Source: a virus. From it: a stretch of 64,000 nucleotides of DNA. The notes beneath the pieces are model-generated. The model was not told the origin of the DNA, ran no database searches, and was given only the letters and a program-made list of their open reading frames with translations. Positions within the stretch are counted from its first letter, which is position 1. Each line of letters opens with the position of its first letter. The DNA lies in IMG/VR virus record IMGVR_UViG_3300028840_004475, positions 83,748-147,747 of that record. One strand, 5' to 3'. This document shows, in pieces, positions 31,342 through 32,072 of this stretch. Made by a program: the position numbers and the translations under genes.

Positions 31342-31452
31342 GTGGGCCGAATGGATTGCAGGGTTATCGATGGTTCGAATCCACCTGGCGGGTCTAAACC
31401 ACCCGCTATCGCCTAGCTGGTTAAGGCACCCCTGTACCAACAACTTGCCCAC
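31342..31452 (+). ncRNA. Y RNA-like RNA 2 with permuted tRNA-like module
   Basis: GTGGGC...GCCCAC ends, GGGCCGAATGG and GGGTTATC in the 5' strand, ACCAACAACTT in the 3' strand. The insert reads T arm (GGTTCGAATCC), an acceptor-like hairpin (GGCGGGT / ACCCGC) and D arm (CCTAGCTGGTTAAGG), i.e. a circularly permuted tRNA as in YrlA. Confidence 0.8.
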
Positions 31453-31469
31453 TTTGAATTATGGGAGTT

Positions 31470-31597
31470 GCGGGCCGTAGACTGAACGTTATCTAAGCGC
31501 GCAATTTTGCGCTTATAGCTCAGTTGGTAGAGCGCCGGGGGTAGCCTCGGAGGTCGAGGGTTCGAATCCCTAACGACGTTCTTTCAGCTTTGTCCGC
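31470..31597 (+). ncRNA. Y RNA-like RNA 3 with tRNA-like module in normal order
   Basis: GCGGGC pairs with GTCCGC. The 5' strand has GGGCCGTAG and a variant CGTTATC. The insert begins with a hairpin (TAAGCGC / GCGCTTA), then a D arm (AGCTCAGTTGGTAGAGC), an anticodon-like stem (CCGGG / CTCGG) and a T arm (GGGTTCGAATCCC). The permutation point differs from RNAs 2, 6 and 7. Confidence 0.7.
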
Positions 31598-31619
31598 GCC
31601 CTACCTATTAGAGGAGTTT

Positions 31620-31682
31620 GAGGGCCGGAAGTCTTGGGTTATCACTTCGGATGATGCTTCCCAGGACACTAACTTTGCCCTC
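31620..31682 (+). ncRNA. Y RNA-like RNA 4 (compact)
   Basis: GAGGGC / GCCCTC ends; GGGCCGGAAG and GGGTTATC in the 5' strand, ACTAACTTT in the 3' strand. CTTGGG pairs with CCCAGG and ATCA with TGAT around a CTTCGG-type loop. No tRNA-like insert. Closest relative is RNA 1. Confidence 0.8.
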
Positions 31683-31701
31683 GTTTCTATACACTGAGTT
31701 T

Positions 31702-31768
31702 GTGGGCCGGAGGCAACGGGTTACCTTTCATTTGGAGAAAACACACCCATCGCCAACAACTTGCCCAC
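31702..31768 (+). ncRNA. Y RNA-like RNA 5 (compact)
   Basis: GTGGGC / GCCCAC ends, GGGCCGGAGG and GGGTTACC in the 5' strand, CAACAACTT in the 3' strand. GGC pairs with GCC and GGGT with ACCC. Short apical loop without tRNA-like arms. Confidence 0.78.
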
Positions 31769-31787
31769 TTCGTTTTGAGAGGAGTTT

Positions 31788-31918
31788 GCGGGCCGTACGA
31801 AATAGGTTACCAATGCAAACTGTAGGTCGCGGGTTCGAGTCCCGTCATCGGCACCATGCCGATGTAGATCAGCTGGTAGATCAACAGTGGTTACACGCCT
31901 ACTTCACTTTTTGCCCGC
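31788..31918 (+). ncRNA. Y RNA-like RNA 6 with permuted tRNA-like module
   Basis: GCGGGC / GCCCGC ends, GGGCCGTACG and AGGTTACC. The insert has T arm (CGGGTTCGAGTCCCG), an acceptor hairpin CATCGGC-ACCAT-GCCGATG whose loop looks like a CCA end joined to a new 5' end, and D arm (GATCAGCTGGTAGATC). ACTGT / ACAGT would form the anticodon-stem connection to the Ro-binding stem. Confidence 0.8.
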
Positions 31919-31940
31919 GTTTCAAAGGACACTATGGTTT

Positions 31941-32072
31941 GAGGGCCGGACGCACGTTGGGTTATCCACTCATAATGGAGAGGTCGCAGGTTCGAATCCT
32001 GTCGTGGCTTTAGCGAGTCACGTAGCTCAGTTGGTCAGAGCGCTAAACCCCCAATGTCAACTATTTGCCCTC
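31941..32072 (+). ncRNA. Y RNA-like RNA 7 with permuted tRNA-like module
   Basis: GAGGGC / GCCCTC ends, GGGCCGGACG and GGGTTATC, 3' strand GTCAACTATTT. Insert: T arm (GCAGGTTCGAATCCTG), acceptor hairpin (CGTGGC / GTCACG) and D arm (AGCTCAGTTGGTCAGAGC). Last member of the array, 17 nt before the next gene. Confidence 0.8.

What the first reader, a model, noticed from the sequence alone, without database searches (positions are those of the whole stretch)
31342..32072. Two kinds of Y RNA and two ways of inserting a tRNA-like module
RNAs 1, 4 and 5 are compact hairpins. RNAs 2, 6 and 7 carry T arm, capped acceptor hairpin, D arm in that order, a circular permutation entered through the anticodon stem, as known for bacterial YrlA. 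RNA 3 has hairpin, D arm, anticodon-like arm, T arm, i.e. another permutation point. One array thus holds three architectures, perhaps ligands for different partners of one Ro60.
Basis: partly seen in the sequence, partly recalled or inferred. Interest (0 to 1): 0.85.

Follow-up and report, generated by a model that had tools for sequence, protein, structure and literature searches.

The report
Phage Y RNAs built from permuted tRNAs
Beside its Ro60 gene this phage encodes seven small 'Y' RNAs, four of which are whole tRNA-like folds opened at four different places and spliced onto the Ro60-binding stem; relatives in bacteria carry the same RNA cut open at the opposite end, which suggests that tRNA is used as an interchangeable scaffold in Ro60 particles.

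Summary
Downstream of a Ro60 gene (29393-31126) lie seven Y RNAs. R1, R4 and R5 are compact; R2, R3, R6 and R7 carry a tRNA cloverleaf with a capped acceptor. Rearranged into tRNA order, all four are called tRNAs by ARAGORN (0 of 2000 shuffles each; none as encoded). R7-like RNAs recur beside viral Ro60 genes, including seven named actinophages, with varied anticodons but a tRNA-like loop (U33 in 18 of 20). R3-like RNAs recur in at least two and probably four other loci, and mixed arrays also occur elsewhere. Bacterial and some viral Ro60 loci hold reciprocal permutants: linear tRNAs with a Y stalk inserted at the same site; rotating them 51-60 bases aligns them to R7. Compact RNAs carry the UUAUC loop motif described for animal Y RNAs. 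Most likely all are Ro60 ligands whose tRNA-like ends tether tRNA-recognising factors. Function is inferred, not shown. Verdict: new variant of the bacterial Y RNA (YrlA) kind.

The parts
29393..31126 (+). Ro60 (TROVE + vWA) gene, 577 aa from the first ATG
   Evidence: Pfam TROVE 142.8 bits and vWA_Ro60 171 bits; only TROVE match in the 147,747-base virus record; D372/S374/S376 (DVSGSM) invariant among 24 relatives
31136..31196 (+). R1, compact Y RNA with GGGTTATC loop motif (outside the quoted coordinates)
   Evidence: z -2.9
31342..31452 (+). R2, Y RNA with tRNA module; the stalk replaces the anticodon stem. T arm 31369-31385, capped acceptor 31386-31408, D arm 31411-31427
   Evidence: class B0, acceptor 7/7; de-permuted form called tRNA, 0/2000 shuffles
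31470..31597 (+). R3, Y RNA with tRNA module entered at the T/acceptor junction: capped acceptor hairpin 31494-31515, TA, D arm 31518-31533, anticodon-like arm 31535-31550, T arm 31556-31572
   Evidence: class C1, acceptor 7/7 capped vs 4/7 open; 0/2000; drawn fold = MFE -50.7
31620..31682 (+). R4, compact Y RNA
   Evidence: z -2.9; weak Rfam match to nematode sbRNA RF01656, below gathering
31702..31768 (+). R5, compact Y RNA
   Evidence: Rfam RF01656 sbRNA 31.1 bits, gathering 38
31788..31918 (+). R6, Y RNA with tRNA module entered through the anticodon loop: split anticodon stem ACTGT 31819-31823 / ACAGT 31884-31888, T arm 31829-31845, acceptor 31846-31864 capped by ACCAT (31853-31857: discriminator + CCA + T), D arm 31867-31882
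   Evidence: class B1, 7/7; 0/2000; YrlA 42.5 bits, gathering 69
31941..32072 (+). R7, Y RNA with tRNA module entered at the D/anticodon junction: complete anticodon arm 31965-31979 (loop CTCATAA, CAU), variable 31980-31985, T arm 31986-32002, capped acceptor 32003-32022, D arm 32025-32041, GCTAAACCCCC linker
   Evidence: class B2, 7/7; de-permuted = tRNA-Met(CAU), 0/2000 shuffles; YrlA 49.1 bits, gathering 69
32757..39490 (+). Array of 37 ordinary tRNA genes directly downstream; several spacers read NCCA|T|, like the cap of R6

Best explanation
R1-R7 are phage-encoded Y RNAs, ligands of the adjacent phage Ro60. All share one stalk: a lower helix with a bulged C (GNGGGC-CG ... CUU-GCCCNC) for Ro60, then an upper helix with a GUUAYC loop. 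R1, R4 and R5 are the bare stalk. In R2, R3, R6 and R7 the apical loop is a tRNA cloverleaf whose own ends are closed by a cap on the acceptor stem and whose new ends are the Y stem, entered at four different junctions (shown by sequence and covariation, not by probing). The permuted forms arose from a linear tRNA with a Y stalk inserted: in a tandem duplicate, the stretch from the stalk of copy 1 to the stalk of copy 2 is the permuted RNA, and the old intergenic spacer (CCA + T in R6) becomes the cap (inferred). In the cell the lower stem would hold Ro60 while the tRNA-like end docks a host factor that recognises tRNA, such as PNPase as described for D. radiodurans Y RNA or a tRNA-modifying or tRNA-cleaving enzyme. 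The different faces exposed by the four modules would let one Ro60 present several adaptors during infection (inferred). My shares: architecture about 0.9, tandem-duplication origin about 0.6, tether function about 0.5.
For: Stalk and order of arms. De-permuted modules are tRNAs, 0/2000 shuffles each. Upper stem of 59 compact relatives covaries although it was not selected for. UUAYC in 36 of 58 compact candidates on the Ro60 strand versus 0 of 19 on the other, found without using the motif. R7-like RNAs with full anticodon arm: 20 sense, 0 antisense, U33 and R37 in 18 of 20, varied anticodons. Pattern scan of 2.9 million viral contigs: 14 matches, 10 with Ro60 in the held DNA, the other four short or cut. 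R3-like RNAs elsewhere and mixed arrays. Linear tRNAs with an inserted Y stalk: 23 of 65 candidates become tRNAs once the stalk is removed, versus 5 of 200 random places. Rotating seven of them 51-60 bases raises identity to R7 from 46-54 to 81-92 bases, above all shuffles. Tether role of Y RNA for PNPase: PMC8394870, PMC4726728, PMC7790460.
Against: No expression, probing or binding data. The record holds no PNPase-like, RtcB or RNA-ligase Pfam match, so any partner would be a host protein. Thermodynamic z-scores are modest and the R6 MFE does not draw the T arm. The cap CCA is seen in only 9 of 60 T-acceptor-D RNAs (about 1 expected), and five of the nine are from Verrucomicrobia with similar RNAs. 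Retained anticodon arms are not obviously needed for a PNPase tether.
Confidence: 0.6

Rival explanations
1. Decoys: the tRNA-like Y RNAs, R7 above all with its whole anticodon arm, occupy host anticodon nucleases or other tRNA-targeting defence enzymes, with Ro60 stabilising the decoy.
For: R7-like RNAs keep a tRNA-like anticodon loop (CUNNNAA) with many different anticodons and are mostly viral. Competitive inhibition of an anticodon nuclease was suggested for the YrlA tRNA-like domain in PMC7790460, and phage tRNAs are argued to counter tRNA-depleting defence in PMC10264068.
Against: R2, R3 and R6 lack an intact anticodon loop. Chromosomal Ro60 loci carry such RNAs too. No defence target was identified.
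Confidence: 0.2
2. Permuted tRNA genes: the RNAs are precursors cut at the acceptor cap (RNase P and 3' processing) to give real, possibly two-piece, tRNAs.
For: The R6 cap is ACCA+T, like the one-base intervening sequence of a CCA-encoding T. pendens permuted tRNA gene described in PMC3978253. R7 gives a full tRNA-Met(CAU).
Against: The phage already encodes two Met(CAU) tRNAs and an Ala(TGC) tRNA. R2 and R6 have no anticodon of their own and R3 has an abnormal anticodon loop. Every module sits on a Ro60-type stalk with the UUAYC motif.
Confidence: 0.08
3. R3 is an ordinary tRNA with a processed acceptor, as the reader's own refutation test puts it.
For: cmscan gives RF00005 27.6 bits over 31509-31578, just below gathering.
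Against: The acceptor 5' strand pairs 7/7 with the upstream hairpin strand and only 4/7 after the T arm. ARAGORN does not call it as encoded. The same layout recurs with cap GCCATAT at L133 2775-2910 and in L090, probably also L104 and L101.
Confidence: 0.04
4. Relics: tRNA pieces from the neighbouring tRNA array captured by recombination into Y RNA loops without function.
For: A 37-tRNA array lies directly downstream, and its NCCA|T| spacers match the cap of R6.
Against: Modules are only 73-80% identical to the nearest phage tRNA. Acceptor stems still pair 7/7. The same layouts recur in unrelated loci.
Confidence: 0.08

Closest known systems
YrlA, bacterial tRNA-mimicking Y RNA (Rfam RF02553; described in PMC8394870)
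   Same: Terminal stem for Ro60/Rsr, with T, capped acceptor and D arms in permuted order. R6 and R7 match the Rfam model weakly.
   Different: R6 and R7 are below gathering (42.5 and 49.1 vs 69 bits) and R2 and R3 do not match. R7 has a complete anticodon arm, R3 another permutation point, R2 lacks a separate anticodon stem. The UUAUC motif is not in the YrlA consensus line.
Metazoan Y RNAs and nematode sbRNAs (RF01656)
   Same: Bulged-C lower stem, upper stem, and the UUAUC loop motif reported for vertebrate Y RNAs and sbRNAs (PMC4726728). R5 and R4 score 31 and 24 bits against an sbRNA model.
   Different: Below gathering, much shorter, phage and bacterial. That review calls bacterial Y RNAs non-homologous to the vertebrate ones.
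Circularly permuted tRNA genes (C. merolae, T. pendens; PMC3978253)
   Same: 3' half before 5' half, several permutation points, CCA and a one-base intervening sequence in one case.
   Different: Those make working tRNAs through a circular intermediate and a BHB motif. Here the ends are a Ro60-type stem; a BHB motif was not searched for.
Linear tRNAs with an inserted Y stalk (L131, L194, L005, L006 and others, this work)
   Same: Same parts and the same insertion site as R7 or R6; circular permutants of them.
   Different: Acceptor end open, Y stem closed by a short loop. Rfam annotates three of them as plain tRNA.

Membership tests
Y RNA (Ro60 ligand) | Encoded beside a Ro60 homologue | tested here: met
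Y RNA (Ro60 ligand) | Terminal stem with bulged C and conserved 3' CUU | tested here: met
Y RNA (Ro60 ligand) | Binds Ro60 | not testable with these tools
   needs pull-down or gel shift
YrlA (RF02553) | Score at or above Rfam gathering (69 bits) | tested here: not met
   R7 49.1, R6 42.5, R2 and R3 no match
YrlA (RF02553) | T arm, capped acceptor, D arm in that order on the Y stem | tested here: met
   R2, R6, R7; not R3
YrlA (RF02553) | Tethers PNPase and carries D and pseudouridine | not testable with these tools
   biochemistry
Canonical tRNA | Called as tRNA in encoded order | tested here: not met
   ARAGORN none as encoded, tRNA only after de-permutation
Circularly permuted tRNA gene | Yields a mature tRNA after cap removal | not testable with these tools
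   needs RNA-seq
Metazoan Y RNA / sbRNA | UUAUC loop motif on an upper stem | tested here: met
   source of the motif PMC4726728
Metazoan Y RNA / sbRNA | Rfam gathering score | tested here: not met
   RF01656 31.1 and 23.9 vs 38 bits

The most novel reading that the evidence does not exclude
Ro60 systems use the tRNA cloverleaf as a general scaffold that can be opened at any junction. The same chimera exists as two circular permutants, tRNA-open and Y-stem-open, and phages have specialised an anticodon-bearing class with varied anticodons as a set of adaptors or decoys for enzymes that recognise anticodons. The UUAUC stalk would be an element shared by bacterial, phage and animal Y RNAs.
Probability: 0.3. 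Interest if true: 0.9.

Novelty: new variant of a known kind. Interest (0 to 1): 0.74.

Why it matters
tRNA mimicry by bacterial Y RNAs is described in the accessible literature as one design with D, T and acceptor arms. Here one phage array holds four designs, one with a complete anticodon arm, and bacterial relatives are circular permutants of that one. This makes the origin of permuted tRNA mimics traceable through tandem duplication of a tRNA with a Y stalk. It gives a natural set of Ro60 ligands with which to test what the module binds. It also points to the UUAUC motif as a link to animal Y RNAs, where a review states that the bacterial ones are not homologous.

Tried and rejected
R3 as an ordinary tRNA: rejected on acceptor pairing. 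Recent copies of the neighbouring tRNAs: rejected, best identity 73-80%. Phage-encoded RtcB, PNPase or RNA ligase as partner: not found in the record (the record may be a fragment). The inverted-stalk scan alone gives many false hits, so only candidates that become tRNAs after removal of the stalk are counted; the other 42 of 65 are not claimed. In the lower stem, pairing was a search criterion, so its pairing percentage proves nothing; only the variety of pair types and the upper stem count. L123 and L129, first noted as tRNA-open, are probably adjacent Y RNAs (no ARAGORN call). A cap CCA as a general rule: only 9 of 60. The classifier leaves many RNAs as 'T-only', 'long-noT' or 'other', so class counts are lower bounds. 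The primary papers on bacterial Y RNAs (Chen 2014; Wang 2018; two Wolin reviews) are not held, so part of this may be published.

Full report
What is there. The window is the last 64,000 bases of a 147,747-base virus record. The gene 29393-31126 encodes a Ro60 homologue with TROVE and vWA domains. It is followed by seven Y RNAs and then by 37 tRNA genes. Each RNA has a lower stem GNGGGC/GCCCNC (GUCCGC in R3) with a bulged C and a 3' CUU (UUU in R7). The second pair of that stem is A-T, T-A or C-G in different copies, so the copies themselves covary. Each also has an upper stem followed by GUUAYC. A second contig carries an identical copy of the whole region.

The three compact RNAs. R1, R4 and R5 are bare stalks of 61-67 nt. 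Related compact RNAs were found beside Ro60 genes in bacteria and viruses. In 59 of them the upper stem, which was not used to find them, covaries: five of its eight positions show both-sided changes in 20 or more sequences. A search that did not use the motif found UUAYC in 36 of 58 candidates on the Ro60 strand and 0 of 19 on the other. The same UUAUC loop motif is reported for nematode sbRNAs and vertebrate Y RNAs (PMC4726728). R5 and R4 give weak matches to an sbRNA model.

The four tRNA-bearing RNAs. I wrote rules for T arm, D arm, acceptor and anticodon arm and applied them to all loci. The four modules of the window fall into four classes. R2: the stalk takes the place of the anticodon stem and UUAUC sits where the variable loop would be. 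R6: the RNA keeps its own anticodon stem, ACUGU/ACAGU, and the stalk enters through the loop. R7: a complete anticodon hairpin, UCCA-CUCAUAA-UGGA, precedes variable loop, T arm, capped acceptor and D arm, so the stalk enters between D and anticodon arms. R3: the capped acceptor comes first, then U8-A9-like UA, D arm, an anticodon-like arm and T arm, so the stalk enters between T arm and acceptor. All four acceptor hairpins pair 7 of 7. Put back in tRNA order, the four are called tRNA by ARAGORN (R7 as tRNA-Met), none of 2000 shuffles of each is, and none is called as encoded. R2 and R6 needed a 7-base loop supplied in place of the stalk. The folds are at or within 2.5 kcal/mol of the minimum.

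Chance and recurrence. R7-like RNAs occur 20 times on the Ro60 strand of the collected loci and never on the other. Their anticodon loops keep U33 (18/20), a purine at 37 (18/20) and A38 (18/20), while the anticodons vary: GUU, GCU, GUG, CAU, UGU, GCA, UGA and others. Named phages with one are prophiGD43A-5, FuzzBuster, BearBQ, Big4, Sham, Trina and SM23. A fixed pattern of the R7 core found 14 places in 2.9 million viral contigs. Ten have a Ro60 gene in the held DNA and the rest are short or cut; several are duplicates, leaving about eleven distinct sequences, and one (L198) looks tRNA-open. R3-like RNAs recur in L090 and in the Verrucomicrobia locus L133 with 6-7 of 7 acceptor pairs, and probably in L104 and L101, where the classifier could not decide. 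Mixed arrays occur in L090, L104 and L133. Verrucomicrobia add a further entry point, between anticodon arm and T arm, which I read mostly by eye.

Reciprocal permutants. Scanning for a stalk closed at its base found linear tRNAs with an inserted Y stalk. Of 65 candidates 23 become ARAGORN tRNAs when the stalk is removed, against 5 of 200 random places, one of which is itself such an RNA. Seven of them, rotated by 51-60 bases so that they open in the Y-stem loop, align to R7 with 81-92 identical bases, against 46-54 unrotated, and score above every shuffle. R7 and these RNAs are therefore, in layout, the same molecule cut at opposite ends. A tandem pair of tRNA-open genes contains the Y-open form between its two stalks, with the spacer as the cap. 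R6 is capped by ACCA+T, the same as several spacers in the phage tRNA array, and 9 of 60 permuted RNAs start their cap with NCCA (about one expected, though not all independent). A permuted tRNA gene of T. pendens likewise has a one-base intervening sequence after an encoded CCA (PMC3978253). The duplication origin is inference.

How it probably works. Y RNA is described as tethering the Ro60 homologue Rsr to PNPase in D. radiodurans, and YrlA's tRNA-like domain as the effector end (PMC8394870, PMC4726728, PMC7790460). By the same logic the phage Ro60 would hold the lower stem of R1-R7 and the tRNA-like end would hold a host factor. The record has no PNPase, RtcB or RNA ligase match. Which factor, and whether R2, R3, R6 and R7 have different ones, is open. 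The main rival is a decoy for anticodon nucleases, best suited to R7.

Membership. These are Y RNAs by position, stem and motif; binding is untested. R2, R6 and R7 share YrlA's order of arms but miss the Rfam threshold. R3 does not share the order. They work like YrlA and are best filed as new variants of tRNA-mimicking Y RNAs.

Limits. No expression or binding data exist for this phage. Class counts are lower bounds because the classifier leaves many RNAs undecided. The primary literature on bacterial Y RNAs could not be read here, so priority cannot be claimed.

Noticed in passing
window 31207-31330: A further structured stretch between R1 and R2 (closing stem GCUGACG/CGUCAGU, MFE -48, z -2.3) without Y stalk or tRNA arms; no match among 50,697 phage records.
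   Followed up: partly
L019 4988-5066 (phage prophiGD43A-5, MW584167.1): The gene annotated tRNA-Thr(tgt) lies in what looks like an R7-like Y RNA (anticodon arm, T arm, capped acceptor, D arm, GCTAAACCCC linker), so the annotation is probably wrong.
   Followed up: partly
L008 and L018 6611-6684: ARAGORN calls a tRNA-SeC directly after the Ro60 gene; likely a Y RNA module.
   Followed up: no
window 50855-50930 and 51635-51711 (- strand): Two tRNA-His genes with the unusual anticodon ATG, apart from the main tRNA array and on the other strand.
   Followed up: no
L131 3715-3839: A chromosomal linear tRNA with Y stalk that appears to encode CCA after the acceptor and keeps a CAU anticodon arm, so it might be chargeable.
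   Followed up: no
L005 4719-4838, L006 4542-4663, L017 4661-4798: Rfam reports these 120-138 nt chimeras as plain tRNA; long insertions in Ro60-adjacent tRNA hits may be a quick way to find more.
   Followed up: partly
L151 927-1211: A Ro60 gene with compact Y RNAs and one permuted tRNA-like Y RNA on a contig binned as Bathyarchaeota; may be a binning error or Ro60/Y RNA in archaea.
   Followed up: no
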